Assembly (NCBI RefSeq): GCF_001908105.1
Contig: NZ_MKGQ01000010.1
Coordinates: forward strand, 1-17,465
Length of the DNA: 17,465 bases
Source: Xenorhabdus eapokensis
GTDB taxonomy: Bacteria; Pseudomonadota; Gammaproteobacteria; Enterobacterales; Enterobacteriaceae
Reading direction: 5' to 3'
The position numbers were made by a program, and so were the translations under genes. Numbering within the stretch: the stretch's first letter is position 1; the number at the start of each line of letters is the position of its first letter. Under the pieces are notes generated by a model that saw only the letters and a list, made by a program, of their open reading frames with translations, was not told the DNA's origin and made no database searches. Below are positions 24 through 17,465 of this stretch, one piece after another.

Positions 24-64
24 AGCCTTTTGTTCCTTTATTTCTCTATTTTTGACGACTTAAA

Positions 65-93: not shown

Positions 94-126
94 CTCACCC
101 TAAAAGTCGAGCATCGCGTTAATTTA

Positions 127-190: not shown

Positions 191-3136
191 TTAGTCTTTT
201 TTGTCAGCATAAGGACGAACATATTTCATAATACACTCCAGTTTTTCACAGGTTTCCTGCCATTCTCTTTCTGGCCTTGAATCTCTGACCAAGCCGGCAC
301 CCGCCTGAAGCCAACAACGTTCTTGATGCTGATAGAAAGAGCGTAATACCAGCGCGGCATCCAGTTTACCTGTGCTATCCAGCAGCATGACACAACCACT
401 GTAAAGCCGACGTGGTTCACCTTCATAACGAGAAATCGCTTGTAAAGCAGGTTTTTTCGGTATCCCTGACGCGGTGACGGCCGGGAATAAGGCAATAAAG
501 GCATCCCAACGATTTTTGCCTGTCTGTAGTAACCCTTTTACTCGTGATGCTAAATGTTGTACCGAACCACGTTCACGAATAGCCATAAATTCTGATGCAC
601 AAAGCGTGTCTGGCTGGCAAATCGGCGCTAATTCTTCTAATGCCAGTTTGACCGAAACCGCGTGTTCGGAAATTTCTTTTGGATCAGAAAGTAAATCGGC
701 TCGCAATTTTTGATCTTGCTCCTTGTTATGTGTCAATGCTCTGGTGCCTGCCAACGGCTGGGTATTAACCCAACCCGAACCTTCTGCCTCAACGACGGTT
801 TCTGGACTGAAACCATAAGCAGAGAAATCGCCATCACGTAAGAAGAAAGAGCGGGCAGGTGTGTTAGCCTGACGTCCCAGCCAGTAACTGTGTGTTATAT
901 CAACATTTGAACCAAGCTCAACTTTGCGTGACAGGATCACTTTTTGGTAGTGACCGGCGGTAATATCTTGAACCGCATTTGCAACGTTGTTTTGATAATT
1001 TTTTGCCGCATCTGCTGGGGTGATAATTTCCATCTCTTTTGTATAGGGGAAAGTCGGTGTGCCTAATTGATCAGCTTGCTTGATTTTCTCGCCCAATATG
1101 GAGACTTGCGCTTCTTCCAGTGTCCGTATCAGCACCTGTCCTTGAGTTATGCGTAATTCATGCTGTGGAATAGTGATTTTCATTAGCGCTTCATTTTGTT
1201 GTTCTAATGATGGCTCTAACGGTATCCCATACGTCATATGGGAAAACTCGAATAATGTTTTGCCATAAGCACGCCAGTCTTTAATCGGAACAGCATTGAG
1301 CGTTTGCTCAAGTTTTTGGCTGAGTGTATTGATATCGTATGGTTGGCGATAGCCCTGTGAATCAATCAATTGTCCCGATGCATCTGCGCTGATAGTTGCA
1401 GCACAGCCTATACCCATTGACCATTCACCTTTTATTTCGTAGAGCATACAAGGTTGTGCATCATTATCGGCAAGTAAGCGGGTAACCAGATCTAACGGAT
1501 TGCTGGTAATCGCGATCGTCTGTTCATGGTATTGCTGCATTGGGCGGTTGTTTTCTGCTTGTGCCATCTGTACTAACTGGCGTTTATCGATTTTTCCTAC
1601 TGCGGTTAATGGCCAATACGCCACAAATAACCATTGGTCAGGGATTTTATGACGCTGAACGCCTTTCTGATGCAAAAATGCTTGCATCTGTGCGGGATCG
1701 GGTTGGTTGATGCTTTTTGGCAGGCAAGCACAAATGCATTCCCCCAAAAGTTCATCAGGAACCGCGATGACAACGGCGTCATCAATATCTGGATGTTGCA
1801 GCAGCAAAGTTTCAACTTCTAGTGTTGAAATTTTTTCACCGCTGCGGTTAATTTGCTCTTTAATCCGTCCCTCAACGATCAGGTTGCCATCAGGTCTGAT
1901 GCGAACCAAATCGCCTGTGCGGTAGAATCCATCGGTGGTGAAAGCGACGGTATTGTGCTGTTCAGCACGGTAATATCCGGTAATGGTGTAGGGACCTCGT
2001 GTAATCAGTTCGCCTACCTCGCCGGATGCGACGGGTTGCAGATTAGTATCAACAATTTTGATCTCATCTTCTTCTGATAGTGGGCGCCCTTGGGTGTTAA
2101 TAACGACTTCATCAGGATCATCCAGTCGGGTATAGCAAAGCAATCCTTCCGCTGTACCAAATACCTGTTGTAAAGGACCAAGGCGTGCCATGATCTGTTC
2201 TGCCAGTTCTGGTGTTAGTCTGCCACCACCGACTTGTAAGCAACGTAAGGACGAAAGGTCACTTTGTTCCCAATCGCGCGCCTGTTCCCAGAGTCGGGCA
2301 AGAGCCGGTACGAGTGCTACATGAGTCACCTTATGCTGCTCGATCAATGGCATAGCTTCATCACAACTGGCGGTATCACTGAGAAGTACACATCCTCCCT
2401 GAGAAAGTGTGCCCAGAATACCGGGGCTGCCTAAAGTGAAATTATGGGCAACAGGCAATACGGCTAAATAAACACTTTCAGTGTCGATTGCGCACAGGCG
2501 GGCTGAAAGCACAAAATCATAGGTATAAGCATCGTGGGTACGCGGGATTAATTTGGGTGTGCCCGTTGTTCCTCCGGAAAGCAAAAGTACGGCAATATCG
2601 CCATAACCTGGACCAGGAATATTGAGTGGTTCCTCCTCAATGGAGGCGAATGGGGTAAATTCTTCAGCCTCTCCATCCACGATAATATGTTTAAGTTCGT
2701 CACAAGATGCTGCAACTTCCCGCGCCATTTCTCGATAATCAAAACCGTGGATACAATCAGGAATAATATAAGCTACCGGACGTGCAATCTGGCAAAGCGC
2801 ATGAACATCATGTGCCCGTTGGGTAGGCATTAATAATACGGGGTGAGCACCTAGTCTGAACAAGGCAAAACAGGTGACAACAAAGGAGATACGGTTAGGG
2901 AGCTGTACCATAACATTATCACCACGGCGTATTCCACGATGAGACAATCCGCTAGCTAACCTTTCCGCAGATTGATGGAGTTCATGGTAAGTTAGCCGTT
3001 GTTCTTGATCAATCAACGCGGTTTTATCTCCCCAGATACTGGACCATCCGGCAAGCTGCTGATCCAGCGTTTTGCCATTCCAAAGATAATTGGGTGTCAT
3101 AGTCAGTGTTTTTCCTAGGATAGAAAAAGGTGCCAT
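191..3136 (-). CDS. Fused salicyl-AMP ligase / salicylate synthase
   Basis: This 981-aa protein joins two steps that are separate genes in the yersiniabactin locus. Residues 1-525 are an aryl-acid adenylating enzyme of the DhbE/EntE/YbtE family: P-loop SGGTTGTPK (187-195), aryl-binding HNF (231-233), VFGTAEG (325-331), YRTGD (405-409) and catalytic Lys515 in GKIDKRQL. Residues from about 540 to the end are a chorismate-utilising salicylate synthase (Irp9/YbtS/MbtI family). The general-base Lys732 is in QKVILSR, followed by GFSPE (Glu779), PLAGTR (794-799), metal-ligand Glu824, SVQHL (858-862), TASGIPK (888-894), LYSG (911-914) and Glu961/Glu964. Every expected catalytic motif is present, so both halves look active: chorismate to salicylate plus pyruvate, then salicylate to salicyl-AMP for loading an aryl carrier. 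The start at 3136 is chosen because AAGGAG lies 8 nt upstream and its ATG shares one base with the thioesterase stop (TAATG). The longer open frame starting at 3247 would overlap the thioesterase by about 110 bp without adding conserved sequence. Confidence 0.93.
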   Translation of the reverse strand: MAPFSILGKTLTMTPNYLWNGKTLDQQLAGWSSIWGDKTALIDQEQRLTYHELHQSAERLASGLSHRGIRRGDNVMVQLPNRISFVVTCFALFRLGAHPVLLMPTQRAHDVHALCQIARPVAYIIPDCIHGFDYREMAREVAASCDELKHIIVDGEAEEFTPFASIEEEPLNIPGPGYGDIAVLLLSGGTTGTPKLIPRTHDAYTYDFVLSARLCAIDTESVYLAVLPVAHNFTLGSPGILGTLSQGGCVLLSDTASCDEAMPLIEQHKVTHVALVPALARLWEQARDWEQSDLSSLRCLQVGGGRLTPELAEQIMARLGPLQQVFGTAEGLLCYTRLDDPDEVVINTQGRPLSEEDEIKIVDTNLQPVASGEVGELITRGPYTITGYYRAEQHNTVAFTTDGFYRTGDLVRIRPDGNLIVEGRIKEQINRSGEKISTLEVETLLLQHPDIDDAVVIAVPDELLGECICACLPKSINQPDPAQMQAFLHQKGVQRHKIPDQWLFVAYWPLTAVGKIDKRQLVQMAQAENNRPMQQYHEQTIAITSNPLDLVTRLLADNDAQPCMLYEIKGEWSMGIGCAATISADASGQLIDSQGYRQPYDINTLSQKLEQTLNAVPIKDWRAYGKTLFEFSHMTYGIPLEPSLEQQNEALMKITIPQHELRITQGQVLIRTLEEAQVSILGEKIKQADQLGTPTFPYTKEMEIITPADAAKNYQNNVANAVQDITAGHYQKVILSRKVELGSNVDITHSYWLGRQANTPARSFFLRDGDFSAYGFSPETVVEAEGSGWVNTQPLAGTRALTHNKEQDQKLRADLLSDPKEISEHAVSVKLALEELAPICQPDTLCASEFMAIRERGSVQHLASRVKGLLQTGKNRWDAFIALFPAVTASGIPKKPALQAISRYEGEPRRLYSGCVMLLDSTGKLDAALVLRSFYQHQERCWLQAGAGLVRDSRPEREWQETCEKLECIMKYVRPYADKKD

Positions 3137-3939
3137 TATGCGAACTCCTTTGAATAAACATATTGCATAAATTGGGTAATGTGATGAATAAAGCTTTGTG
3201 GCTTTTGCGTAATGTAAAAATGATCGCCGGCCATCTCCTGGCAGCAATACGTAAGGTTTTGCTTGTCACTTGCCAGCCAATGATGCCATTGCTGAACTTC
3301 CAAAGCGGAAGCCTCTTTATCTTCGTTGCCATAAAGCAACAACGTGGGTGTTTGTAGTTTTACTGGATCAGGTTGAATAGCGTGGTAATAGTGTTCTGTA
3401 GCAAAAAAATCAGCCCGTAACATAGGTAAAAACAGGGCAAGTAATTCGGGATCTGCCTGTAAAATCGGGCTGCAACCACCGATATCAATCAGTTGCTCAA
3501 TGAATTCATGATCAGGCAATCCACTCAGTTGGCGGCGGGATTGAAGATGGGGAGCATGACATCCCGAAAGTACCAATGCCTTGGGGGCACAGTTATATTG
3601 TTCAAGGCATCGGCAGGTTTCAAAAGCGACCTGAGCCCCCATACTGTGGCCGGCCAGTATCAGCTTCTCTCTCTGTGCGGGAGTCAATGATCGGATCACA
3701 TCAGCAAGTGACTGAGCCAATGGCGTAATGCGGGTAACCGCATGTTCATTCATACGGCTGTCACGTCCGGGGTAAATCACCAGTGAAACAGCGATATCTG
3801 GATTTTCCAGTACAGACCATTGACGGAATGCGCTGCTGCTGCCCCCAGCAAAGGGGCAGATTAATAGCGTGTATTTGGGTTCGCCACGAGGTGTCAGACA
3901 CGGGCGGATCATCGGATGTGCGGGGAGTGCCCAATTCAT
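3136..3939 (-). CDS. ybtT: Type II (editing) thioesterase, Irp4/YbtT-like
   Basis: A 267-aa alpha/beta hydrolase of the external thioesterase family that accompanies NRPS/PKS operons. The N-terminal LLICPFAGGSSSAFRQW resembles the family's oxyanion-hole region. The nucleophile is Ser99 in AGHSMGA, the acid is Asp207 in YGNED, and the base is His240 in AGDHFYI, so the catalytic triad is complete. Length is normal for the family. Its expected role is hydrolysing misprimed acyl or aberrant aminoacyl groups from the carrier proteins of the megasynthase, in the cytoplasm. It starts 14 nt after the reductase stop with an AAGGA that overlaps that stop, and ends in a TAATG overlap with the ligase/synthase gene. 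It does not duplicate the TE domain at the end of the megasynthase, which releases the product. Confidence 0.9.
   Translation of the reverse strand: MNWALPAHPMIRPCLTPRGEPKYTLLICPFAGGSSSAFRQWSVLENPDIAVSLVIYPGRDSRMNEHAVTRITPLAQSLADVIRSLTPAQREKLILAGHSMGAQVAFETCRCLEQYNCAPKALVLSGCHAPHLQSRRQLSGLPDHEFIEQLIDIGGCSPILQADPELLALFLPMLRADFFATEHYYHAIQPDPVKLQTPTLLLYGNEDKEASALEVQQWHHWLASDKQNLTYCCQEMAGDHFYITQKPQSFIHHITQFMQYVYSKEFA
3145..3150 (-). promoter_or_regulatory. Ribosome-binding site fixing the fusion-gene start
   Basis: AAGGAG on the reverse strand, 8 nt before the ATG at 3136 and inside the last codons of the thioesterase gene. It supports the internal start over the upstream ATG at 3247, and fits termination-reinitiation coupling through the TAATG junction. 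Confidence 0.7.
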
Positions 3940-3953: not shown

Positions 3954-5051
3954 TTAATGATTATCAACAGGTAGCATCAATTGAACAGGATCAATCCAGA
4001 CCGGTGGCTGTAAATCCTGAGTAACTGGCTCTCCCATCATGCGTAAAATTTGTTGCCACAAGTCGGCCAACCGCAATTGGTAGTCGTAGCTAAAAGCAGG
4101 GGGGCAGAGTGCGCCATTCAATACTGAACCTAAGGTATTTAGTAGCAATGCCACACCTTCGGCACCATCACATTCAAATGCTGTCATCCAATTTGGCGTT
4201 GCCGGACAAAGAACTTGTGATGTTGTTTGGTGCAGATAGGCACCATCCGGCTGACTGGCCGTCAGATAGAGACTCTGACCATTATTCAGATGATTCGGGG
4301 CATGAAGAACCGGTGTCCAGATCACCGGCCCATAACTGGCTTCCTGCGTAAGATAACCGGCCGGCCAAATCAGCGTCATTTTATGCATAGCAAGGTTGTG
4401 CATATCGGGATCTCTGGGATCCAGATAAGATTGAACGTCTAGCGCTATGGTCGTTCCTGCAAAGCGCAGTTCAAAGCCATGAAACACATTATTCCGTTGC
4501 CCCATATAGGCAACCTCGATCTGTTCCGGGCAATGATTGGCCTGTAACAACAGATCAAGTGCGGAAAACAGTAACTGGCGGCTGGTTGTCAGATAGCCAC
4601 TTACCGGACGTTGCTGTGATAAGTGACTGATTTGATGAGCAGCATGTAACCAACTTCTGCCGGCATGGCATTGGCTGTAAAAGCTGTTTACCCAAAACAT
4701 AACATTATGCTTGTTAGCGGCTGACTGGTGTCTTTTGATCGCTTCTGCACCAAGAGGGTGCTCCTGAATGACAGAAATACCACGTGCCAATAATGCCTGG
4801 GTTAATTGATCACCTGTACCGCCGATCACTTCTGCGCGTATGACCACACAGGCAATATCGATCTCATCCGGCAATTCATCCAATGAGCGGAATAGGGGCA
4901 CATTGAAATCGTGGGCAAGCTGCTGCGAACGAGGGCTTCCTTGCGCCAGAATACCGACCAGTTCCAGATCTGACTGAGGCTGTAGAAACGCATTAAGATA
5001 CAGTTCACCAAATTTCGAACCGACAATCAGAACCCGCCGTGGCTTTATCAT
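3954..5051 (-). CDS. irp3: Thiazolinyl imide reductase, Irp3/YbtU-like
   Basis: A 365-aa Gfo/Idh/MocA-like oxidoreductase. The N-terminal Rossmann motif VLIVGSKFGE (7-16) binds NADPH. The EHPLG segment (His98) and Tyr125 match the two residues proposed as acid catalysts in Yersinia Irp3 (His101 and Tyr128, from memory), offset by three. In yersiniabactin and pyochelin assembly this family reduces one carrier-bound thiazoline to a thiazolidine, so at least one reduced ring is expected in the product. The ATG overlaps the megasynthase TGA in an ATGA junction, with AAGGAG 5 nt upstream inside the last megasynthase codons, so translation is probably coupled. Length is typical and no defect is visible. 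Confidence 0.92.
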   Translation of the reverse strand: MIKPRRVLIVGSKFGELYLNAFLQPQSDLELVGILAQGSPRSQQLAHDFNVPLFRSLDELPDEIDIACVVIRAEVIGGTGDQLTQALLARGISVIQEHPLGAEAIKRHQSAANKHNVMFWVNSFYSQCHAGRSWLHAAHQISHLSQQRPVSGYLTTSRQLLFSALDLLLQANHCPEQIEVAYMGQRNNVFHGFELRFAGTTIALDVQSYLDPRDPDMHNLAMHKMTLIWPAGYLTQEASYGPVIWTPVLHAPNHLNNGQSLYLTASQPDGAYLHQTTSQVLCPATPNWMTAFECDGAEGVALLLNTLGSVLNGALCPPAFSYDYQLRLADLWQQILRMMGEPVTQDLQPPVWIDPVQLMLPVDNH

Positions 5052-8000
5052 ATGTTCTCCTTAACGGGCTTAACAGTTGGGACTGAATTCAGGATGTTTT
5101 TCAGACACGCAACCAGAGAGCCGACATGTGTGTGTTGGAATAGGCTGTAATGATCACCATCAAGTTGTGTCACATTGACTGGCCCGAAAGCCTGCCAACC
5201 AAGATCAGTTGAGGTGATGGTGGTTGGATCGAGGTAAGCCATAAAATCAGGCAATGCCTGTTTTGCCCGAATAAGGCAGAAAGGTTGTGGAGTTTGTGGT
5301 GGACAATAGTCAAGCAATGCCCGCAGATTATGCTGCCATACGGCATAAAGCTCAGTCAGTGAGCTATCGATTTGTGCAGATTGCGGTAAGGCTTTGTGCA
5401 GAGCTTGCAGGAAGGTTTCCGTGTTTGCTGCGATAACACTGTTATCCAGTTCCAGCCCAGGGAATTGTCCCTGTAAATCGAGCAGGAAATGATGATGACA
5501 GAATGCATTATCCAGCGTCAGATCCGGGCGCACATTCGGAGCGAAACTATCAATCAGAATGCAATGGGAAACACTTTCACCGGCAGCACGTAATTGGTGA
5601 GCCATTTCATAGGCGACTAATCCACCAAAAGACCAGCCCGCCAGCGCGTAAGGTCCTTTAGGTTGGAAATGACGGATCTGGCTGATGTAATCAGCAGCCA
5701 GCGCATCGACAGAAGGTTTGTCGGTGTTCATGCTCTCAGGCGCAAATGCCAGACCAATTATGGGTTGGGCACCAAAATTGGCTGCTAAATGACGATATCC
5801 TAACAAATGTCCACCAATGGGATGGACGATAAACAAGGTTGCTTGTTCTAAGGTAGATCGTTCTAAGGTAGATCGTTCTAAGGTAGATCGTTCAATGTTT
5901 CCCTTGTTCAGTATCACGCCTTGGCAAGCATTTTTGGGTTGATGCTCAATAAATTCTGCCAATGAATGTACGGTATCGTAAGTTTGCAACAGGCTGAGTG
6001 GGTATTGGCGATTAAATGTCTGATTAATTTGCACCATTAATCGCACCGCTGCCAGAGAATCCCCCCCAAGGGTAAAGAAACTTTCATGCACGTTAATATT
6101 TTGCTGCTCTAATACTGATTGCCAAAGGTTTAATACTGTCTGTCCTGTCGCGCTGAGTGTCACTGATGGGATTGAATCACCTTCTTGCGTTTTTTCAGCC
6201 AGAGTAATCAATGTACGCCTGTCGATTTTACCGTTATCAGATACGGGTATGGTATCGAGCATGATAAATCGTTGTGGGCACATCCAAATTGGCAATGTTT
6301 GCTGCAACCAGTGCGGTAATATCGGTAACAGTTCGGTAGATACTGGCGCAGTATCGGTCAAACGTAAACCTGCGACGAGTTGCAATGCCCCGTTTGACGT
6401 CGTATGTGCAAATACTATCGCTTGTTGTATATCAGGGTGTTCATATAAGCGATGCTCGATTTCGCCCAATTCAATCCGGTAGCCCCGAATTTTAATCTGG
6501 TGATCATTGCGCCCCAAAAATTCGATATTACCGTCTGGTCGCCAGCGACCTAAATCCCCTGTGCGGTAAAGCCGCTCGCCTGTTTGAGGATGCGTGATAA
6601 ATGCTTGTTGCGTTTTTTCTGCATCCGCCCAATAACCCAATGCGAGTCCTTGCCCACCAATATAAAGCTCGCCAGTTACCCAGACCGGACAAGGTGACAG
6701 TGTTGAATTAAGCACATAGAACGTCTGATTAGCCAAAGGCTTGCCATAGGGAATGCTGCGCCAATTAGGATCGATGTGGGCGATAGGATAAGCAATAGAC
6801 CATATTGAGGCTTCAGTTGCACCACCCAAACTGAGCAAGTTAAGCGCAGGGTGAAGGGCAGACAATTTTGCGGGCAAATGGGTGGGTATCCAATCCCCAC
6901 TCATTAATATCCAGCGCAGGCTATTCAGGGAATGAGGATAACTACGGGCATACTCCTCAAGCAGTTGCACAAATGCTGGTACGGAGTTCCAGACAGTAAC
7001 CGATTCTTGCTGTAACCATGTCAGTAGTTTGTCAGGCTGCCGAGTGTCACCAGGGGCAGGAATAACCAGTTTTGCCCCACAGCTCAACGTGCCGAACAGG
7101 TCATAAACGGAAAGATCGAATGTTAACTCTGATATTGCCAGCACGCTATCGTGCTCATTGAGTGCAATGCGTTGGTTAATATCCAGAATAGTGTTGACTG
7201 CGCCCTGATGGTCTATCATTACGCCTTTTGGTTTTCCGGTGGAGCCGGAGGTGAAGATAACATAGGCTAAATCGTCTGGACGTACAGATAAATGTGGCTC
7301 TGCGGTTACGGTTAAGCTATTGAGCAATGTCTCATCCAGAGAGATGAGATGGATATGTTCAGGCCAACTTATCTGTTGAGCAAACTTAGGCTGCGTCAGT
7401 ACGGTATTCACTTCCCCTGATGCCAATAGCTGATGGATCCGCGGTTGCGGATAACTGGCATCAATAGGCAGATAAGCCCGTCCTGCTAATAAAATCGCCA
7501 GCACTGCGACAACCTGTTCCCAGCCTTTTTCCATTACCACCCCGATCAGGGATGAAGCCTGATTTTCCTGTGCTTGCAGATGCGCTGCCAGCCTCAGGCT
7601 GTGTGACCACAAAGTACGATAGTCAATCTGACGAGAGGGATCAACCACAGCGGTACGTTGGGGATAACGATTTACCGCCTGTTCAATCAGCGAGCAAAGC
7701 GTGTGTGGAGGAAAAACATTTTTTGTCGCATTACTGTTCTGACATAAAGCGAGATCATTTGTTGGCAGCCAGTCAGGAAGCGGCGTGCTCCATTGGTAGT
7801 CCGGTTCAAGCAAGGCAATGACACAAGCCTGATAATGGGCGAACATATTTTTTGCAACCTGAGGTTGGAACAGTTGTGGCAGGATAGCCCATTGTATGGT
7901 GACACCACCTTCTGCACCGGAAATTAACATACAGTCGAGATAAACATGGGGAGTTTGCGCGCCAAAGAGATTCAGTGTGCCTAACCCTGACGGTCCTTTG

Positions 8001-11000
8001 CCCGCTGTACCGGTTGTATCGTTGAATACGATTGGCATACCGGCGTTCAGGTTGTGGCGGTGTTGGTTTTTCTCCCTGAGTACTAATTGCCCGTCAAACA
8101 GCGCATGTTGGAGATCGGCCAGCCATTGCCGTTGTATCCGGCTGACAGCATCACTGAAACCGCTGATGTTGCGTAGATCCACTTCCAGCAATGAAGTGGT
8201 AGACAGATTGCCGACTAACATATCGCAATACTGTGGCATTAACAGACGGTTACCATGCAGAACATTGATGGTAAAATGCTCGTTATTGCTCCACCTTGAC
8301 AAAACATGGGCGAATAACGTTAACATCACTTGCGAAGGCGATACTCGGTATTCGGCGGCACGTTGTTGTAAGCGCTGCCATTGTTGTGGACTGATATATC
8401 CGGTCAGGCACTGTTGATCGAGTTGCTGTGACTGGTGATCTTGCAGTGGTAACACCGGAGCATCAGGCAACGAAGGTAAGCGATCAAGCCAGTATTGCCG
8501 GCTTTGTTGCCAGGTTTCTCCAGTTTTCTCATTCTCTAATGCCTGAATATAGTCGCCAATCGTTGCTGCCGGTGGCTCTGGCTGCCAGTCAGGTTCCTGA
8601 TACCAATGGTGTAAATCACGCAAGATTAACGTCAGGCTTTTACCATCCGCAACCAGCAGGTCGATGGTTAAATGCAATACATGCGCCTGATCATCGGTGT
8701 GGTACAGGGTTAAATCAAACAGCGGCCAGTTATCGCTGGGAACGCCTTGAGTACGTAGTGTGTCGCGGGCATGATTCAGTTGTGCTTCGCGTTCATTTGG
8801 CATCATGCTACGGCAATCAATGATTGTTGGTGTATAGCAGGGAACCTCCGGCAAAATACGATATTGCCCATCCTTCACATAACCGCGTAATTGCGCATGA
8901 TGGTTTATTACACGGTTCCAGGCGGCGGTAAAACGAGGCAGATCAAGTCCGTTGATAGCCAGTTCAGCATAGAAATGAGCGATACCGTTACCAAATTGGA
9001 ACAGTTGGCTTTCTCCCAACCAATAAGCGTGTTGCAATGCTGTAAGTGGCAAAATTTGTTCGGATGCCGCTTCAGTTTGATGTGCTATCGCAACTGTCGT
9101 TGAACGGGTCTCAGCAACTCGCAAGGTACGGCAAAATTCACTCAATTTAGGGTGTTCGAAGAGCTGTTGCAGATTGGCGTGTTCGTAACCCTGGCGACGT
9201 AGCTGCACTACCATGCGGGTGGCAATCAGGCTGTCACCGCCACTTTGGAAAAAGTCACTGTGGCGCTGTATTGACTGAGGCAGCAGTGAACGCCAGAGAG
9301 TAATGACTTGTTGTTCAATCTCATAAAGTTGGTCATTTTCTGTTTCTGGTTGTTTGGTCTCTGTGGTGAATGCTTGAGCCGTCCTCTCTTTGACTGTCAT
9401 TATCAGCGGCAACTGCTCTTGCTGTTGAATATGCAATGAGTAAGGCAAGGTAGAAAATTGGGCGGCTATTTCACTGATATTAAGCCGCGTTTGTTGTTCA
9501 GCCCGTGCCAGGATCAGTTGTTGATGCAGCTCTGACCCGTTTTGTCCCGGCCATTCCAATGAAACCCGATAACCGGATTGCGTCAGACACTTCCGCCAGT
9601 CCGCCAGTTCCATCAATGCACTATTACTGTCACCGCGATCATCAACCCAGGCGTTAATACCTTCAATAAACCCGACGCTGGCGAGTTGCATGGCACTTTC
9701 GCGTTTGGTTGATTCAATAATCAGCAACCATCCACCGGTTTTCAGTAACCGAGACAAGCGTCGCAGGGTGTTTCTCAGATGGGTGGCATCATGTAATACG
9801 TTAACCGCCAGAATCAGGTCATAACCGGATTCTGGATGCTGGCTAAAATCAATCTGCTGGTTAATATCGAACAGGGCAAATTTTACGGTTTCGCCGTGTT
9901 GGTTGAGTAACTGGCGGGCATCATCCAAAAATAGCGGAGAAATATCGGTAAAGTGGTAGCTTTGAATGGCGTGGGCATTGTGTGCCAGTACTTTCTCTGA
10001 GGTTGCGCCGGTTCCTGCCCCGACTTCCAGTACAGCGAAATGTTCGGATGTCTGGCTCAATTGTCGGACAATTTCAGCGGCTGCCTGATTCAGGCAACGT
10101 AATGCGGGGTTCTCACTGTAAAGGCTGGCTGTGACTTGTTTATCGGCGAACAGCAGTTCCAATGCATTGCCACGTCCGGCAAGCAGGGTGTCGTGTTGTT
10201 CGATACAGGTTGTGACATAACGACTAATAGTCTGGCACCACTCTGCATCATCCAGTTTTGCTGTCGGGATCGGAACATGACTAAGCGGTTGCAGACAACG
10301 GTATCCGCCAACGGTTTGTTCAATAAATCCCTGCTTATTGAACAAAGTCAGCCATTGGGTAAGCAGGCGTTGATACTGTGGTGCCAGTTGTAAGCGTTGT
10401 TCAATCTCTTCACGAGAGTGAGATTGTTGTACCGCAGTGAATAAGTTATGGCGCAGTAAAGTCTGGCTCAGGCCAAATAATGCCTGTTGCTCAATATGTT
10501 GCCAAGAGCGCTCAAACACTTGTTGTTCTGCCAAGGTTGGTAGCGGTAAGGTATCCGTGTTGATAACCTGTGGTTCTGGTAGTGATAATGACAAATTATC
10601 TTCTGCAACCCACCATAGGTTGTAACCTTGTACATCATCCTGACGTGGCTGAATTTCTGCCATCCGTATTTCAGGTTTAGCACGCAGATATTGTTCGGCT
10701 TGACGCAATTCAGGGTGTTGCGGCCAGAAGTCATAACGCGTATGACCAGACGGTGGCGTATGAAGGTCATAATCCTCCATGCGTTCAGGCTGGTGACAAA
10801 TGTGTGCTAACAGCGCGTTATAAGCGGCAAACAGTGACTCAATGACACCTGCCTCCAGCACATCATCCATACAATACCAGTTGAACAGCAGATCACCATC
10901 GACTTCCATAACCTGATGATCTAACCAGACTTGCGGTGTCTGACTCAGAACAAAGACCGGATCGCCCAGTAATTGGGTGATGGATTGTTTGATAGCGACA

Positions 11001-14000
11001 CCTTCTTGTGCCATGCCTAACATACTGGTGAAAACAACCGGTGTCAGTGGCTGCCTGTTTTGGCTTTCGCCCTGTTGTTGGCGGCCAAGCTCTCGTAATA
11101 CCTCGACACCATTAACATGACTATGGCTCAACCGTTGCCAGAGCAAAGCCTGCGTTTTTTCCATGCTGGCGCGCAGGGACGTTGTCTTGCGTAAATCAAA
11201 ATCCATCAGCATAACTGAGGTAAAATCCCCAATGAGTTCTTGCACCTCTGGATGGAAAGGTTGCCGGTTGAAGAAGGTCAGGTTGAGAGTAAATAACGGA
11301 TGACGGCTGTACCATTCAAGGGTATGGGCAAACAGCGTCAACAGGCCAGCGGAAGGTGTGACTCCCCATTTTTTCCAGCCTTGTTTAAGACGTTGCCAGT
11401 CAGATCGTGTCAATCGACCTTCATAAGTCGTGAATTGTGGCTGGTGACGTTGAGACAATAGTGGATCCAACGGTAATCTTGGCGCCGGAGGTAATGAAAG
11501 GAGTTGCTCCTGCCAGTATGCCCATGATGCCCGCCACGCTTTACTTTCACGCTGCGCTTGTTCTGCCATCACATAATCGCGGAAAGTAAATGCTTGTGGA
11601 GCCAGAGGTTGTTGATGATAAGCGAGTTGTAGATCGTCCATCATGATGCGGAAGCTTTGCACATCAAACTGCAACAGATCCAGATTCATATGTAAGCGGC
11701 AGCGTTCATTTGGTAGCAGTGATACAGAGACTTCAAACAACGGCCACTGTTCGGCAGGCGGTACTTGGTAGGAGAGGGTATGACGACGCTGAGCCAAAGC
11801 CTGTTCGCAGGCCGTATTATTCAGTGTCCGCAAATCATCCTGAGACAGAACATACCACGGCGTTTCCGGCAAAATCCTTTGTTGCCCGTCTTCATCGACT
11901 ATCATGCGCAACATGCCATGACGTTGAATCAACGCATTCCATGCCTGTTCAAAATGTGGGATATCAAAACTCTCCAGAGCCAGATCCCATTCAAATAAGA
12001 CGTGACAAGCGACACCACCAAAATCAATGGCCTGTGTACGACCAATCCAGTAAGCGTGCTGAATGGGGGTCAGAGGAAATGGTGCGTGACGCTGGGAACG
12101 GTCAATAATCACCTCTGGTTGGGAAGAGACGACAGGTTGTTCAGGCAGGGCATCCCCAATGAGTGTATTAAGCCCCTCTAGCGTCATATTCTGATAAGCC
12201 AATTCAGCGGTTAATCTTAAGCCAAATTGCTGGTGGATCACCGCATTCAGTTCCAGAAACAGCAGGGAATCCAAACCGAATTGCAATAAATCCTGTTGTG
12301 ATGCTAAACGTTCAGGTTGTTCTAAGCGTAATAATGTTGCGACCCGTTGACGCAGCCAATAGAGTCGTTGCTCACTATCCTGATACAGCGTGTTATCGGC
12401 AGGGTGTGAAGAGGCCGATGTGGTAACTGGATGGATAACATCAGCCTGTAAGCGGCGCAAAATATCAGGATGATGCTCATCTAACCGCATTGCCAGATGG
12501 CAAGGTGATGTGGTGTACAGCGATTGATTGAGATGCCAGATACCTTCATTTGTGCTGAAGGGTAACATGCCATCTTGCGCCAGTTTTTCCACTAATCGTC
12601 GGTCGCTGGCCATACCAATGCCACCCCAAACTCCCCACACCAATGTCTTAACCATCAATTGATTTGGTGCTGTCAGCGCTAAAGATTCCAGACAAGCGTT
12701 GGCGATGGCATAAGCACCTTGCCCTTGGGCGCCTAACATGGAGGCGGCAGAAGCGTGAAGCAGCAAATATTGTGCATTATGCTGTTGGAGCGCAGCTTGC
12801 AATGCCAATGCACTGTGCGCTTTGACGGATAATACCTGTGACAAGTGTTGACGCTCAAGTTTTGCCAGTGGGGTATGGTCAGCAATGCCTGCGGCATGGA
12901 TCGCGCCAGCGATACCCTCCCCTTGTGCCAGATCTTGCACGGCATTTAACAAGGCTTGCGTATCAGTGACATCAAGGTTAATCCAGCGTATTTCACATTC
13001 GCTACTCAGGGACAATGCTTGTACAAACGTATCCCAATCTGCCTTTTTGCGGCGGGCAAATACGGCAATCTTACGGGCACCTTGGGCTAGCAACCAACGA
13101 ATGGAGATCTGACCAATACCGCCCATGCCGCCAGTAACAATATGCCAACCCTGGTGGGAAATGGATATTGCCTGCGGTGATAGGTGTTGCGATGATAATA
13201 ATTGGCGTTCCAAAACCGGAGCAGCGACCTGCTTGCCGCGCACTCTCAGCCAGCGATGCTGTTCATTCAGATAACCAAGCGCTAATGACAAAGCATCAGC
13301 ATCATTGATATCAGCGATATCAATCGCCCGGATGCGACGATGGGGGTACTCTTCAACCGCGACACGCAGCAACGCCCAGATAGCGTATTGAGCAGGGTTG
13401 ATATCCTCTTTTAATAAGGTGGATTCTGGTTGGGCGCAGCAGGTGACAACGGTTAAAGGTGCTGTTTCATCGCGTTTTAGCTCACTAATAACTTGATCAC
13501 ATAATGCAGTAATATCATTGCCTTCAAGCAGTAATAACGTGTTTCCGCTTTCAGGTTGTAAATGAATGCCTGCCTGACGCCAATGATTAATGATCTCGCC
13601 ATTTTCTATTGAGGTGCGAAGAGTATAGGTTGTTGAAGATTCCGGTGTATCCGCGGTGTTTATTGTGCGCCAATGCAAGACATAATGAGTATCAGGGCAT
13701 GGTTGTGGTGCAGGAAGCCATGCTGTTGTCATAGATTGGGATATCACCGATTGACGAGGCAGATCAGCACGATCACTCAACAGAGCGAATAAACGCTCGC
13801 CAGCATAGATCAGTGCCGGAAAAGCCGCGAATAAACTCGCCTCCAATAACCGACGCTTAACATAAGGCAAGGCACGGTAAGGACGATATATTTTGCTTAC
13901 CGTTGGGCTGGAAACCGCCTGATAATAACCTTGCTGAACACAGTGAGTTAATAACTGTTCCAGCAAAGGACGCCAGCAGGGTTGTAGTCGGCCAGCCCGG

Positions 14001-16843
14001 ATCGTGTCGATGGCACTGAAACCTTGTTCAGCATCACGTCCGTGACACTGATATACCAATGCGTCGGTATACAATGCCCGCAGTATTAGCGCGTCGGGGT
14101 TTTGTTCAATGGCAGGGTCGAGCAGGGCATTGACATTAAGTTCAGCATGGGTATTGGCGAAGGGTTGCTCGGTTTTATGTGTCGGTAATCCGGTTGCAGA
14201 GAAGCGGTAATGCTGCTCATCAAATGGATAGAGTGGCGCATGGCATTTTACTCCGGTAAACGGGAAAAGCGGCTGCCAATCAAGATGTGCACCAGCACAG
14301 TAAAGTTGCAGAAGAGCTGTTTGCTGAGCTGTCTCTGGGGAGCCTTGACGATTTGCACTCGCCATCCAGGTTTCCTGCGGCAGACTGATACGTCGTCCGA
14401 TCCCTGTTAGCTGGGCATCAGCCCCAAATTCCATGAACAAGGTCACACCTTGCTGGCGGGCAAATTCAATGGCTTGATAATAACGAACCGTGTGGCGCAT
14501 ATGGTGACACCAGTAATCTGGTGAACCTAATTGTTCATAATCTGCAAGATTGGCTGTTAAGGTGGAAATTAGTGGAATTTCTCCTGATGCAGGGTGTAAC
14601 CGACGGCAATGCTGGGAAAATGTTTCCAGAACAGGATCAAGCATGGCTGAATGTGCCGCACAGGCAACATTAAGGCGCTGGCAACGAATCTGCTGCTGTT
14701 CCAGACGTTGTACCAGGATATCAATTTCTGCCTCTGTACCGGCCCAAACCCAGTGCTGCGGGCCATTGCAAACCGCCAGATCCAATGCCAGTGAATGGGT
14801 AAAAGGCAGAATATCGTCTTCGTTGGCAAAGACCGCCAGCATTGCTCCGCCTTGGGAACAGTTTTGCATGAGCTTGCCTCGTACCGCGACCAGCGGCATG
14901 ACCTGTTCAGGTGTGAAGATGCCGGCCACAACGGCAGCCGCAAATTCACCGACGGAATGCCCCAGTACATAATCAGGTTTTAGCCCAAGTGCCCGCCAAT
15001 GCGCAGCCAACGCAATTTGATGTGCCACAATGGCCGGTTGTGCATATTCGGTGGTCGCTAATGCGCCATCCTGTTCGCCGAACATCACGGTTTTTAACGG
15101 CAATGCTAATTCAGAGGCGCAGGCAGCAGCGCAACGATCTAACATGGCGGAGAAAACCGGAGAGCTGGCATACAGGGCTTTTCCCATGCCAGACCATTGA
15201 CAACCCTGACCACTGAATTGCCACAGTTGCTTGTTTTCGCTCTTGGCTTGTCCGCTAAACATGTTTGGTGTTGGCATATTGTTCGCAAAAGCGGATAGGC
15301 TGGCAGTATTTTCCTCAAGATTTTGTGGTGATATTGTCAGCGCTAAGCGCCAGGGCAGGGAAAGATCACGTCCCTGTAATGCAGTCCAGGCCAGATCGGC
15401 ATAATGTTCTGGGGCATTATTGAGCGCAGTCGCGTAGCGTTGTGCCAATTGACGCAATGAAGATTCAGAAGCGGCAGAAAGCAGCAATGGCGCTGTTGGT
15501 GAATGGTTAACATGGCGACGTTGTAATTCTGTTGGCAACGATTGCACCACAATATGACAGTTGGTGCCGCCAATACCGAATGAAGAAACACCGGCGGTAC
15601 GCAATTCTTGCGTCCATTGTTGCCCTTGTGTTGCCAGCCTGAATGGGCTTTCTTGCAGTCGTAATGCCGGATTGGGTTGCTGTACATTGATCGTTGGAGG
15701 AATGTAACCATGCCAAACGGACAAAACCGTTTTGATCAAACTGGCAATGCCTGCGGCAGTATCGAGATGGCCGATGTTGCTTTTCACTGAGCCAAGGTAA
15801 CAAGGCGCGGCTCCGGCATGGCGGTCAGAGAATATGCTGCGTAATGCGTCAACTTCTATCGGGTCGCCAAGGGGTGTTCCTGTGCCATGTGCTTCAATCA
15901 TACCGACATCATCAATGCTGACATCTGCCAGTTGTAATGCTTCGCTAATCACACGGCGCTGACCATTCACCGACGGTGCAGTAAAGCCCACTTTTTCGTT
16001 GCCATCGTTATTGATGGCACTGCCACGCAACACGGCCATGATGGGATCGCCATCGCGTAAGGCATCACTCAGACGTTTCAGCGCGACAACACCAACACCA
16101 TTGCCGCCATAGGTGCCATTTGCCTGACTGTCAAAGGGGCGACAATGTCCGTCAGGTGAAAAGATCATCCCAGGCTGATACGCATAACCGCTTTCTTGTG
16201 GGAAAGAAACCGCCACACCACCGGCCAAGGCCATGTCACACTCACCGGAACGCAGGTTCTCGCAAGCCATATGTACGGCAACCAGTGAACTTGAACAGGC
16301 CGTTTGGACAGTGAGTGCAGGACCTTTCAGATTTAATTTATAGGCAGTACGAGTCGCAAGATAATCTTTATCGTTACTCATTAACGCCTGTAACCCTTTC
16401 ACTTTGCCGACATCGGTCATGGCAAACTGTGACCATGAAGGCCAGGTACTGATCCGACTGCTACCAAAGACACCGGTTTTCAGGGGAACATGACGCGGTG
16501 CATAACCGGCATGTTCAAGCGCATGCCAGGCGGTTTGCAGGAATAGACGTTGCTGAGGATCGAGCATTTCTGCTTCCTGACGCGAATAGCCAAACAGCGT
16601 GGCGTCAAATTGTTCTGCGTTCTCCAGTATCGCCGCCTGATTGACAAAGTTTTCACTGTTGATGATTTCAGGAGGAAGACCTGCATCCAATAATGTTTGA
16701 CGGGAGAGTGTCGTTGTACACTCAACCCCATGTTGCAGGTTATGCCAAAAAGTATCGCTATCGGGTGCCTGTGGAAAACGGCAGGCAAGGCCAATCACTG
16801 CGATGGGATCACAATTATCGTAGTGAGGCGTTAAGTTAGTCAT
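5048..16843 (-). CDS. irp1: HMWP1/Irp1-like hybrid PKS-NRPS with an extra Cys module
   Basis: A 3931-aa megasynthase, longer than Yersinia HMWP1 (about 3160 aa). Domains in order are: KS about 10-434 (Cys183, His319, His359); AT about 535-850 (Ser630 in GHSVGE, Arg655); about 900-1040 looks like the N-terminal lid of a C-methyltransferase without a SAM core; KR about 1050-1455 (TGGMGGIG 1237-1244, Lys1341, Ser1365, Tyr1378, Asn1382); ACP about 1490-1565 (Ser1526); Cy about 1588-2030 (DLLQFD, Asp1722/Asp1727); methyltransferase about 2060-2450 (SAM motif LEVGAGTG 2272-2279); PCP about 2505-2575 (Ser2538); Cy about 2598-3025 (DLLVAD, Asp2728/Asp2733); A about 3045-3545 (TSGSTGKPKG 3198-3207, Lys3539); PCP about 3562-3635 (Ser3596); TE about 3668-3920 (Ser3738 in GWSFGG, Asp3765, His3898). 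The A-domain pocket reads D-L-Y-N-L-S-L-I-W, the known cysteine code. The first Cy module has no A domain, as in HMWP1. AAGGAG lies 7 nt before the ATG, which overlaps the upstream stop (ATGA). The frame is intact throughout. Confidence 0.93.
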   Translation of the reverse strand: MTNLTPHYDNCDPIAVIGLACRFPQAPDSDTFWHNLQHGVECTTTLSRQTLLDAGLPPEIINSENFVNQAAILENAEQFDATLFGYSRQEAEMLDPQQRLFLQTAWHALEHAGYAPRHVPLKTGVFGSSRISTWPSWSQFAMTDVGKVKGLQALMSNDKDYLATRTAYKLNLKGPALTVQTACSSSLVAVHMACENLRSGECDMALAGGVAVSFPQESGYAYQPGMIFSPDGHCRPFDSQANGTYGGNGVGVVALKRLSDALRDGDPIMAVLRGSAINNDGNEKVGFTAPSVNGQRRVISEALQLADVSIDDVGMIEAHGTGTPLGDPIEVDALRSIFSDRHAGAAPCYLGSVKSNIGHLDTAAGIASLIKTVLSVWHGYIPPTINVQQPNPALRLQESPFRLATQGQQWTQELRTAGVSSFGIGGTNCHIVVQSLPTELQRRHVNHSPTAPLLLSAASESSLRQLAQRYATALNNAPEHYADLAWTALQGRDLSLPWRLALTISPQNLEENTASLSAFANNMPTPNMFSGQAKSENKQLWQFSGQGCQWSGMGKALYASSPVFSAMLDRCAAACASELALPLKTVMFGEQDGALATTEYAQPAIVAHQIALAAHWRALGLKPDYVLGHSVGEFAAAVVAGIFTPEQVMPLVAVRGKLMQNCSQGGAMLAVFANEDDILPFTHSLALDLAVCNGPQHWVWAGTEAEIDILVQRLEQQQIRCQRLNVACAAHSAMLDPVLETFSQHCRRLHPASGEIPLISTLTANLADYEQLGSPDYWCHHMRHTVRYYQAIEFARQQGVTLFMEFGADAQLTGIGRRISLPQETWMASANRQGSPETAQQTALLQLYCAGAHLDWQPLFPFTGVKCHAPLYPFDEQHYRFSATGLPTHKTEQPFANTHAELNVNALLDPAIEQNPDALILRALYTDALVYQCHGRDAEQGFSAIDTIRAGRLQPCWRPLLEQLLTHCVQQGYYQAVSSPTVSKIYRPYRALPYVKRRLLEASLFAAFPALIYAGERLFALLSDRADLPRQSVISQSMTTAWLPAPQPCPDTHYVLHWRTINTADTPESSTTYTLRTSIENGEIINHWRQAGIHLQPESGNTLLLLEGNDITALCDQVISELKRDETAPLTVVTCCAQPESTLLKEDINPAQYAIWALLRVAVEEYPHRRIRAIDIADINDADALSLALGYLNEQHRWLRVRGKQVAAPVLERQLLSSQHLSPQAISISHQGWHIVTGGMGGIGQISIRWLLAQGARKIAVFARRKKADWDTFVQALSLSSECEIRWINLDVTDTQALLNAVQDLAQGEGIAGAIHAAGIADHTPLAKLERQHLSQVLSVKAHSALALQAALQQHNAQYLLLHASAASMLGAQGQGAYAIANACLESLALTAPNQLMVKTLVWGVWGGIGMASDRRLVEKLAQDGMLPFSTNEGIWHLNQSLYTTSPCHLAMRLDEHHPDILRRLQADVIHPVTTSASSHPADNTLYQDSEQRLYWLRQRVATLLRLEQPERLASQQDLLQFGLDSLLFLELNAVIHQQFGLRLTAELAYQNMTLEGLNTLIGDALPEQPVVSSQPEVIIDRSQRHAPFPLTPIQHAYWIGRTQAIDFGGVACHVLFEWDLALESFDIPHFEQAWNALIQRHGMLRMIVDEDGQQRILPETPWYVLSQDDLRTLNNTACEQALAQRRHTLSYQVPPAEQWPLFEVSVSLLPNERCRLHMNLDLLQFDVQSFRIMMDDLQLAYHQQPLAPQAFTFRDYVMAEQAQRESKAWRASWAYWQEQLLSLPPAPRLPLDPLLSQRHQPQFTTYEGRLTRSDWQRLKQGWKKWGVTPSAGLLTLFAHTLEWYSRHPLFTLNLTFFNRQPFHPEVQELIGDFTSVMLMDFDLRKTTSLRASMEKTQALLWQRLSHSHVNGVEVLRELGRQQQGESQNRQPLTPVVFTSMLGMAQEGVAIKQSITQLLGDPVFVLSQTPQVWLDHQVMEVDGDLLFNWYCMDDVLEAGVIESLFAAYNALLAHICHQPERMEDYDLHTPPSGHTRYDFWPQHPELRQAEQYLRAKPEIRMAEIQPRQDDVQGYNLWWVAEDNLSLSLPEPQVINTDTLPLPTLAEQQVFERSWQHIEQQALFGLSQTLLRHNLFTAVQQSHSREEIEQRLQLAPQYQRLLTQWLTLFNKQGFIEQTVGGYRCLQPLSHVPIPTAKLDDAEWCQTISRYVTTCIEQHDTLLAGRGNALELLFADKQVTASLYSENPALRCLNQAAAEIVRQLSQTSEHFAVLEVGAGTGATSEKVLAHNAHAIQSYHFTDISPLFLDDARQLLNQHGETVKFALFDINQQIDFSQHPESGYDLILAVNVLHDATHLRNTLRRLSRLLKTGGWLLIIESTKRESAMQLASVGFIEGINAWVDDRGDSNSALMELADWRKCLTQSGYRVSLEWPGQNGSELHQQLILARAEQQTRLNISEIAAQFSTLPYSLHIQQQEQLPLIMTVKERTAQAFTTETKQPETENDQLYEIEQQVITLWRSLLPQSIQRHSDFFQSGGDSLIATRMVVQLRRQGYEHANLQQLFEHPKLSEFCRTLRVAETRSTTVAIAHQTEAASEQILPLTALQHAYWLGESQLFQFGNGIAHFYAELAINGLDLPRFTAAWNRVINHHAQLRGYVKDGQYRILPEVPCYTPTIIDCRSMMPNEREAQLNHARDTLRTQGVPSDNWPLFDLTLYHTDDQAHVLHLTIDLLVADGKSLTLILRDLHHWYQEPDWQPEPPAATIGDYIQALENEKTGETWQQSRQYWLDRLPSLPDAPVLPLQDHQSQQLDQQCLTGYISPQQWQRLQQRAAEYRVSPSQVMLTLFAHVLSRWSNNEHFTINVLHGNRLLMPQYCDMLVGNLSTTSLLEVDLRNISGFSDAVSRIQRQWLADLQHALFDGQLVLREKNQHRHNLNAGMPIVFNDTTGTAGKGPSGLGTLNLFGAQTPHVYLDCMLISGAEGGVTIQWAILPQLFQPQVAKNMFAHYQACVIALLEPDYQWSTPLPDWLPTNDLALCQNSNATKNVFPPHTLCSLIEQAVNRYPQRTAVVDPSRQIDYRTLWSHSLRLAAHLQAQENQASSLIGVVMEKGWEQVVAVLAILLAGRAYLPIDASYPQPRIHQLLASGEVNTVLTQPKFAQQISWPEHIHLISLDETLLNSLTVTAEPHLSVRPDDLAYVIFTSGSTGKPKGVMIDHQGAVNTILDINQRIALNEHDSVLAISELTFDLSVYDLFGTLSCGAKLVIPAPGDTRQPDKLLTWLQQESVTVWNSVPAFVQLLEEYARSYPHSLNSLRWILMSGDWIPTHLPAKLSALHPALNLLSLGGATEASIWSIAYPIAHIDPNWRSIPYGKPLANQTFYVLNSTLSPCPVWVTGELYIGGQGLALGYWADAEKTQQAFITHPQTGERLYRTGDLGRWRPDGNIEFLGRNDHQIKIRGYRIELGEIEHRLYEHPDIQQAIVFAHTTSNGALQLVAGLRLTDTAPVSTELLPILPHWLQQTLPIWMCPQRFIMLDTIPVSDNGKIDRRTLITLAEKTQEGDSIPSVTLSATGQTVLNLWQSVLEQQNINVHESFFTLGGDSLAAVRLMVQINQTFNRQYPLSLLQTYDTVHSLAEFIEHQPKNACQGVILNKGNIERSTLERSTLERSTLEQATLFIVHPIGGHLLGYRHLAANFGAQPIIGLAFAPESMNTDKPSVDALAADYISQIRHFQPKGPYALAGWSFGGLVAYEMAHQLRAAGESVSHCILIDSFAPNVRPDLTLDNAFCHHHFLLDLQGQFPGLELDNSVIAANTETFLQALHKALPQSAQIDSSLTELYAVWQHNLRALLDYCPPQTPQPFCLIRAKQALPDFMAYLDPTTITSTDLGWQAFGPVNVTQLDGDHYSLFQHTHVGSLVACLKNILNSVPTVKPVKENI
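5845..5889 (-). repeat. Three 15-bp tandem repeats in the PCP-TE linker
   Basis: The forward-strand unit GTTCTAAGGTAGATC occurs three times exactly, back to back, followed by GTTC of a broken fourth copy. On the coding strand this gives three identical ERSTL pentapeptides (about residues 3651-3665) in the linker between the last PCP and the TE domain. The unit is a multiple of three, so gain or loss of copies by slippage keeps the frame and only changes linker length. Identity at DNA level suggests a recent expansion. Confidence 0.95.
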
Positions 16844-17373: not shown

Positions 17374-17383
17374 GATGATTTGG

Positions 17384-17389
17384 TATAAT
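17384..17389 (+). promoter_or_regulatory. Perfect -10 box ahead of the transposase
   Basis: TATAAT lies 34 nt before the transposase ATG at 17424, a usual distance for an IS promoter. The -35 region is poor (TTATTA at 17360-17365 with an 18-bp spacer), so the promoter is weak or uses sequence at the insertion junction. It reads away from the operon. Confidence 0.35.
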
Positions 17390-17423
17390 TACTTTCGCCA
17401 AAAAACAACCAGACCTCACCATC

Positions 17424-17465
17424 ATGCCGCGAACTATGTTAACAGATCTCCAATGGAATAAGCTA
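17424..17465 (+). CDS. Transposase, N-terminus only (IS5-family-like)
   Basis: Fourteen codons, reading M-P-R-T-M-L-T-D-L-Q-W-N-K-L, run off the right edge. The pattern MPR..LTD.QW..L is typical of the N-terminus of IS5-family (IS427-group) transposases with a DUF4096-type start. This is recognised from a short match, so the family assignment is moderate and the completeness of the element is unknown. There is no clear Shine-Dalgarno sequence, which is common for transposases. Confidence 0.6.
   Translation, partial: MPRTMLTDLQWNKL

What the first reader, a model, noticed from the sequence alone, without database searches (positions are those of the whole stretch)
5936..9055. Extra Cy-A-PCP cysteine module inserted before the TE of an HMWP1-like synthase
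Yersinia HMWP1 ends Cy-MT-PCP-TE. Here a complete second module (Cy with DLLVAD, A with cysteine code D-L-Y-N-L-S-L-I-W, PCP with GGDSL) sits between that PCP and the TE. The product should carry one more cysteine-derived thiazoline at the carboxyl end than yersiniabactin, provided the upstream NRPS acts as in yersiniabactin. Related longer assembly lines make piscibactin and photoxenobactin-type compounds; which of these this matches cannot be told here.
Basis: partly seen in the sequence, partly recalled or inferred. Interest (0 to 1): 0.75.

Follow-up and report, generated by a model that had tools for sequence, protein, structure and literature searches.

The report
Extra non-cyclising module in photoxenobactin synthase
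The extra cysteine module is real, but it is the published last module of the photoxenobactin/piscibactin siderophore assembly line, and its ring-forming domain lacks several ring-closing residues, so it probably gives the product a sulphur-containing end rather than a fourth ring.

Summary
The 3931-aa protein at 16843-5048 (minus strand) reads KS-AT-KR-ACP-Cy-MT-T-[Cy-A-T]-TE, with the extra module at about 9061-5948. The window is a pxb (photoxenobactin/piscibactin) cluster: the 26 loci of the genome scan are Xenorhabdus and Photorhabdus, and the module is in print as Cy4-A2-T6 (PMC9396620, PMC9177418). One more thiazoline is not supported: published mutants and labelling tie this module to thiocarboxylate/dithioperoxoate ends.

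Added here: Cy4 has its own active-site fingerprint. In 30 of 30 PxbG/Irp1 proteins the cyclodehydration Thr is Asn or Ser, the helper Gln is Met or Ile and the gating Phe is Gly or Ser; the catalytic Asp and DxxxxD are kept. None of 191 other Cy domains sampled shows it. Cy4 is under strong purifying selection and groups apart across two orders. Thr-to-Asn also marks AzsO, an ester-forming Cy domain (PMC10445470). I read Cy4 as a specialised thioester-forming Cy, not a ring former.

In this strain pxbF is interrupted by an IS5-family end at about 17336, so production here is doubtful.

The parts
5048..16843 (-). pxbG: 3931-aa PKS/NRPS, KS-AT-KR-ACP-Cy3-MT-T5-Cy4-A2-T6-TE
   Evidence: relatives spanning residues 1-3931 in L001-L026
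7769..9061 (-). Cy4 (residues about 2595-3025): DxxxxD kept, D2970 kept; N2941 in place of the dyad Thr, M2972 in place of the helper Gln, Gly in place of the gating Phe
6227..7684 (-). A2, cysteine-type adenylation domain (residues 3054-3539)
   Evidence: cysteine type from the motifs, which match A1 of PxbF closely; one search shows the adenylation family only
5948..6142 (-). T6 carrier domain (residues 3568-3632; GGDSL starts at 3593)
5111..5839 (-). type I thioesterase domain (residues 3669-3911; GWSFGG starts at 3736)
10781..12076 (-). Cy3 (residues 1590-2021), canonical active site: T1939, D1975, Q1977
9563..10081 (-). carbon methyltransferase region of module 5 (residues 2255-2427)
3954..5051 (-). 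pxbH, thiazolinyl imide reductase
   Evidence: TIGR01761 309.7 bits, cut-off 188.8; Pfam Irp3-like_C
3136..3939 (-). pxbI, type II thioesterase
   Evidence: Pfam Thioesterase
191..3136 (-). pxbJ, fused aryl-acid AMP ligase and salicylate synthase; likely start ATG at 3136 (the listed ORF starts at TTG 3247)
   Evidence: TIGR03494 476.5 bits, cut-off 325.15; the ligase half is under its NCBIfam cut-off (587.9 of 723.55) but matches Pfam AMP-binding
16840..17335 (-). 3' remnant of pxbF: last stretch of Cy2 plus T3
   Evidence: 141 of 164 residues identical to residues 1886-2049 of the L001 open frame
17336..17465 (.). end of a multi-copy IS5-family element; its transposase starts at 17424 on the + strand and runs off the window
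   Evidence: 25 of 30 genus genomes match, best copies 99-100%; transposase NF033580 266.7 bits, cut-off 110, in a G016 copy

Best explanation
The window is a Xenorhabdus-type photoxenobactin/piscibactin (pxb) operon, pxbF(remnant)-G-H-I-J. The extra module is module 6 (Cy4-A2-T6). A2 loads cysteine on T6 (inferred from motifs; A2 mutants lower titres in X. szentirmaii, published). Cy4 then joins the piscibactinyl chain from T5 to that cysteine but does not close a ring: its active site keeps what is needed for condensation and lacks the Thr and Gln used for cyclodehydration, as well as the gating Phe. The bond is probably a thioester to the cysteine thiol. C-S cleavage then leaves the sulphur on the product (thiocarboxylate, or its oxidised dithioperoxoate), and the TE and type II TE clear what is left on T6. 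Shown here: architecture, active-site fingerprint, its conservation, and selection. Published: thio-termini depend on module 6. Inferred: thioester rather than amide; sacrificial cysteine. In this strain pxbF is interrupted before T3, so the line may not run at all.
For: Architecture and 26 loci with relatives spanning the whole protein in Xenorhabdus/Photorhabdus. Fingerprint in 30 of 30 PxbG/Irp1: dyad Thr to N (29) or S (1), helper Gln to M (28) or I (2), gating Phe to G (26) or S (4), T1753 to L (30), Q1858 to H (30), R1509 to E (30); Asp1862 and both DxxxxD aspartates kept in 30 of 30; Cy1-Cy3 keep Thr and Phe in 88 of 88 (HMWP2 numbering and roles from passages of PMC9547227, and PMC8807600). 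0 of 191 other Cy domains sampled share the fingerprint. A relative from another family of the same order carries the same motifs (L066). Cy4 dN/dS 0.049-0.100 in six comparisons, like Cy3. One side of a branch with support 100/100. AzsO: a Thr-to-Asn Cy domain shown to make an ester bond (PMC10445470 passages). Published T6 and module 6 mutants lose thio-terminated products.
Against: Neither residue loss is decisive alone: PchE-Cy1 has Ala at the Thr position and still cyclises, by its authors' account with help from T474 or Q482, and Cy4 keeps the T474 equivalent; BmdB-Cy2 and PxbF Cy1 lack the Gln and are held to cyclise. In AzsO the Asp is also Asn (kept in some homologues); in Cy4 it is kept. 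The published DxxxxD mutant of Cy4 lowered photoxenobactin C only twofold. HMWP2-Cy2 modelling favours amine-first condensation. PMC12421891 ascribes the unusual release to a weak TE domain. No structure of Cy4 was examined. The long Cy4 branch makes its placement in the tree unreliable.
Confidence: 0.68

Rival explanations
1. Module 6 adds a fourth, cyclised cysteine (thiazoline), as the first reader and the early piscibactin proposal suggested.
For: Complete module with DxxxxD, cysteine-type A and GGDSL.
Against: The products described in the papers seen do not show it; dyad Thr, helper Gln and gating Phe are absent in 30 of 30.
Confidence: 0.06
2. Cy4 makes an ordinary amide with T6-cysteine that is not cyclised, and sulphur reaches the terminus by a later rearrangement or other chemistry.
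For: Condensation residues kept; amine-first condensation favoured for HMWP2-Cy2; the terminal nitrogen of photoxenobactin B comes from cysteine.
Against: Thio-termini tied to T6 are more simply made from a thioester; the AzsO Thr-to-Asn domain acylates the side chain.
Confidence: 0.2
3. Cy4 is merely an inefficient heterocyclisation domain, as Shi et al. put it, or the odd release is due to a weak TE, as PMC12421891 puts it; Cy4 has no special role.
For: Published wording; only a twofold effect of the Cy4 DxxxxD mutant.
Against: Seven of eight marked positions are changed in both Xenorhabdus/Photorhabdus and Vibrionaceae, nearly always to the same letters, with dN/dS as low as Cy3; a failing domain would hardly keep one replacement set.
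Confidence: 0.18
4. Module 6 is a decaying vestige.
For: Earlier suggestion that it might be non-functional (PMC10915793 passage).
Against: Purifying selection on Cy4, A2 and T6; module 6 deletion abolishes photoxenobactin E in V. anguillarum.
Confidence: 0.03
5. The pxbF interruption is an assembly artefact: a contig end collapsed on a repeat.
For: Both window ends lie in multi-copy repeats, typical of draft contigs; the IS is not seen whole.
Against: The junction falls inside a frame that is open over 2034-2104 residues in 26 of 26 relatives, and the IS runs to its terminal repeat at the junction.
Confidence: 0.15

Closest known systems
Pxb assembly line (photoxenobactins/piscibactins) of Xenorhabdus szentirmaii, PxbF-J
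   Same: Same gene set, fused PxbJ, no cMT1, extra Cy4-A2-T6 before the TE (L016)
   Different: Here pxbF is interrupted by an IS5-family end; PxbG best segments are 79% (L016, X. szentirmaii) to 93% (L001) identical
Irp1/Irp2 piscibactin system of Vibrionaceae (L063, L064, L065)
   Same: Same Cy3/Cy4 layout and the same Cy4 changes in 3 of 3
   Different: Cy4 about 47% identical; in L063 salicylate synthase and AMP ligase are separate genes
Yersiniabactin HMWP1/HMWP2
   Same: Homologous line; Cy2 of the relative L001 matches HMWP2-Cy2 (7JTJ) at 473 bits
   Different: HMWP1 has cMT1 and lacks module 6 (PMC9396620)
AzsO Cy domain (azaserine)
   Same: Catalytic Thr replaced by Asn, DxxxxD kept; makes an ester to the side chain instead of a ring (PMC10445470)
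   Different: AzsO uses serine and also has Asn for Asp; Cy4 keeps Asp and has further changes. AzsO itself was not in the alignments here

Membership tests
pxb (photoxenobactin/piscibactin) cluster | HMWP1 homologue without cMT1 | tested here: met
   Only one methyltransferase region in P0001, residues 2255-2427
pxb (photoxenobactin/piscibactin) cluster | Additional Cy4-A2-T6 before TE | tested here: met
pxb (photoxenobactin/piscibactin) cluster | Bifunctional PxbJ (YbtS + YbtE equivalents) | tested here: met
   (ligase half under its NCBIfam cut-off, above that of Pfam)
pxb (photoxenobactin/piscibactin) cluster | Thiazolinyl imide reductase and type II thioesterase in the operon | tested here: met
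pxb (photoxenobactin/piscibactin) cluster | Complete PxbF | tested here: not met
   Only the 3' remnant is in the window, behind an IS end; anything further lies outside the window, and the assembly is not held
pxb (photoxenobactin/piscibactin) cluster | Products are piscibactins/photoxenobactins | not testable with these tools
   needs LC-MS
Canonical heterocyclisation (Cy) domain | DxxxxD motif | tested here: met
   30 of 30 Cy4
Canonical heterocyclisation (Cy) domain | Catalytic Asp-Thr dyad | tested here: not met
   Asp in 30 of 30, Thr in 0 of 30
Ester-forming (AzsO-type) Cy domain | Thr-to-Asn at the dyad with DxxxxD kept | tested here: met
   Asn in 29 of 30, the window among them, Ser in 1; definition from PMC10445470
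Ester-forming (AzsO-type) Cy domain | Ester/thioester bond formation shown | not testable with these tools
   needs an in vitro assay
Yersiniabactin synthetase | HMWP1 with cMT1 and ending Cy-MT-PCP-TE | tested here: not met
   one methyltransferase region only, extra module

The most novel reading that the evidence does not exclude
Cy4-A2-T6-TE is a dedicated thioacid-release module. Cy4 is a Cy domain rebuilt into a thioester synthase that hands the finished chain to the thiol of a sacrificial cysteine; that cysteine donates only its sulphur and its remainder is discarded. This role is older than the divergence of the Enterobacterales and Vibrionaceae forms of the cluster, and the eight-position fingerprint predicts thiocarboxylate products from sequence.
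Probability: 0.45. Interest if true: 0.6.

Novelty: new member of a known kind. Interest (0 to 1): 0.4.

Why it matters
Piscibactin and photoxenobactin lines are widespread in insect- and fish-associated bacteria, and the last module has been read as non-functional, as adding a thiazoline, or as inefficient. A conserved set of residues separating Cy4 from ring-forming Cy domains, together with the AzsO precedent, turns this into a direct biochemical test and warns that domain annotation alone (Cy + Cys-A + PCP) over-predicts thiazolines.

Tried and rejected
Fourth-thiazoline prediction: rejected on published products and on the fingerprint. Loss of the Thr alone as explanation: rejected as insufficient, because PchE lacks it too. 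Loss of the Gln alone: rejected, because PxbF Cy1 lacks it (V in 29 of 29). Own genome: not held, so the rest of pxbF could not be sought. A class-wide sample of 369 genomes gave only the nearest genome, G001, at E <= 1e-80, so it did not extend the distribution; the order-wide sample of 295 gave 4 at E <= 1e-60, one of them outside the genus. A first ORF filter took wrong frames for pxbF in L002 and L015; corrected. The 19 PxbG-type proteins were picked by the Cy4 motif itself, which is circular; the listing names the same 19 independently (83-95% identity over 100% of the module; the next best is 44%). Of 494 domain hits, 30 short ones, all from the proteins, were dropped before the alignment. 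The methyltransferase regular expression missed full-length proteins (L001, L012, L063-L066) and was not relied on. Structure prediction was not run: coordinates are not returned, and the residue mapping rests on the sequence alignment (the T1830-D1862 spacing of 32 in HMWP2-Cy2 fits the alignment).
Full report
What is there. The window holds one co-directional operon on the minus strand: the 3' end of pxbF (17335-16840), pxbG (16843-5048), pxbH (5051-3954), pxbI (3939-3136) and pxbJ (from an ATG at 3136 to 191). pxbF/pxbG and pxbG/pxbH overlap by four bases, pxbI/pxbJ by one. Pfam reads PxbG as KS-AT-KR-ACP-Cy-MT-T-Cy-A-T-TE.

What it is. A scan of GTDB species genomes, which finds close relatives only, gave 26 loci spanning residues 1-3931, all titled Xenorhabdus or Photorhabdus; the best is X. 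thuongxuanensis, at 93% over its best segment. The published pxb cluster has this gene set, a fused PxbJ, no cMT1, and the same extra Cy4-A2-T6 module (PMC9396620, parts 1-3 of 4 of the text read; PMC9177418, passages). So the extra module as such is known.

What the module does, from print. In X. szentirmaii, T6 inactivation removes photoxenobactins C and D; four 34S atoms enter photoxenobactin C, which ends in a dithioperoxoate, not in a fourth thiazoline; the authors call Cy4 the least efficient Cy, catalysing only thioester formation (PMC9396620). In V. anguillarum, deleting module 6 abolishes photoxenobactin E, a thiocarboxylic acid, while piscibactin falls by three orders of magnitude (PMC12421891, passages).

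What the sequence adds. Cy4 aligns to solved Cy domains over most of its length (5T3E, 5T7Z, 7EMY printed, 7JTJ listed). PMC9547227 (passages) names for HMWP2-Cy2 a putative catalytic dyad D1862/T1830, a helper Q1864, a gating F1755 whose mutation severely lowers cyclodehydration, and T1753, Q1858, N1751, Y1505 and R1509. In an alignment of 464 Cy/C domains, the 30 Cy4 rows (window, L001-L026, L063-L065) show: T1830 to N in 29 and S in 1; Q1864 to M in 28 and I in 2; F1755 to G in 26 and S in 4; T1753 to L, Q1858 to H, R1509 to E and the GDFT Asp to N, each in 30 of 30. D1862, both DxxxxD aspartates, N1751 and Y1505 are kept in 30 of 30 (the Ser after DxxxxD in 29). Cy1 (29), Cy2 (29) and Cy3 (30) keep T1830, F1755 and T1753 in all rows; Cy1 has V at Q1864 in 29 of 29. 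The rows are not independent: L010, L017 and L020 lie in one X. hominickii genome and have equal lengths, and L064/L065 show the same motifs and lengths.

How special it is. From a search of 5.8 billion sequences 2190 proteins passed and 120 were listed, so this is a biased sample. Of their 346 aligned domains, 229 carry DxxxxD. 38 belong to 19 PxbG-type proteins, whose Cy4 read ND[MI][GS]LHNE at the eight marked positions and whose Cy3 read TDQFTQDR. These 19 were picked by motif, but are also the only ones listed with more than 44% identity (83-95%). Of the other 191, 149 read TDQFTQDR; ten lack Thr/Ser at the dyad (nine Ala, one Asn), seven lack the Gln, and none lacks both. L066, from a genome of another family in the same order, has the same Cy4 motifs. 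Thr-to-Asn as such is not unique: PMC10445470 (passages) reports it in 129 of 1165 putative Cy domains and shows that AzsO, which has it, makes an ester bond to serine; mutating that Asn abolished the reaction.

Is Cy4 failing or specialised? Between the window and six relatives, dN/dS of Cy4 is 0.049-0.100, of Cy3 0.046-0.074, and of all ten domains tested 0.034-0.188; several dS values exceed 1 and are saturated. In a tree of 81 Cy domains the 10 Cy4 rows, Vibrionaceae and L066 included, lie on one side of a branch (100/100) of length 1.77, against 1.0 for Cy3, 0.59 for Cy1 and 0.41 for Cy2. The root is a midpoint for drawing only, the bootstrap had not fully settled, and the placement of so long a branch is not reliable. 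One replacement set, kept in two orders and held by purifying selection, fits specialisation better than decay.

Mechanism. A2 loads cysteine on T6; Cy4 condenses the T5-bound chain with it, most likely through the thiol; without cyclodehydration the thioester persists; C-S cleavage leaves a thiocarboxylate, and TE/TEII clear T6. The cleavage enzyme is unknown; Shi et al. suspect enzymes from outside the cluster. Points against: PchE-Cy1 lacks the Thr and still cyclises, by its authors' account with T474 or Q482 as proton donor (PMC8807600, passages); Cy4 keeps the T474 equivalent but has Met for Q482. Residual cyclisation cannot be excluded. HMWP2-Cy2 modelling favours amine-first condensation, and PMC12421891 points to a weak TE.

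This strain. Homology to pxbF stops at window 17335. Bases 17336-17465 match a repeat in 25 of 30 genomes of the genus, with 16 matches in G016, the best at 99-100%. Two G016 copies share 887 bp at 99.9%, end in imperfect inverted repeats, and one was read to encode an IS5-family transposase. The junction lies at about residue 1886 of the 2049-residue PxbF frame of L001, near the end of Cy2, so Cy2 is cut from T3. The frame is open over 2034-2104 residues in 26 of 26 relatives. The TA next to the element's end in the compared copies L058-L060 is absent at this junction, so neighbouring sequence may also be lost. About the first 121 bases of the window are likewise a multi-copy repeat (12 of 30 genomes). 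The window is thus probably a whole draft contig between two mobile elements, and the line may be inactive in this strain.

Limits on novelty. I searched for photoxenobactin (13 papers; 5 of them opened), PxbG (11 papers, 10 listed, 2 of those on this cluster), thiocarboxylic acid with heterocyclization and related terms (45 papers, 15 listed), and ester-forming Cy domains (14 papers, 12 listed). The texts or passages seen of PMC9396620, PMC12421891, PMC9177418, PMC10915793 and PMC10445470 do not state that Cy4 lacks the Thr or the Gln. Supplementary figures, where it could be shown, were not readable here, and most subscription papers are not in the library.

Noticed in passing
window 17336-17465: End of an IS5-family element inside pxbF, cutting Cy2 from T3; the ATG of the remaining 177-aa frame lies in the element.
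   Followed up: yes
window 1-121: Another multi-copy repeat of the genus (12 of 30 genomes) just downstream of pxbJ; element not identified.
   Followed up: partly
L025, L026, P0031, P0045: Some Photorhabdus PxbG proteins (3475-3534 aa) are about 400-460 aa shorter than the window's and, for P0031 and P0045, have no methyltransferase family in the precomputed Pfam list, yet keep module 6, although methylation is reported as a prerequisite for module 6 in X. szentirmaii.
   Followed up: partly
L010, L017, L020 (X. hominickii): Three separate contigs of one genome carry pxb loci with PxbG of the same length (3937 aa).
   Followed up: no
L066 (G266, another family of the same order): A pxb-like cluster with a 4072-aa open frame for PxbG carrying the Cy4 motifs, only about 48% identical in Cy4.
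   Followed up: partly
window 191-3136: PxbJ fuses AMP ligase and salicylate synthase; in L063 these are separate genes.
   Followed up: partly
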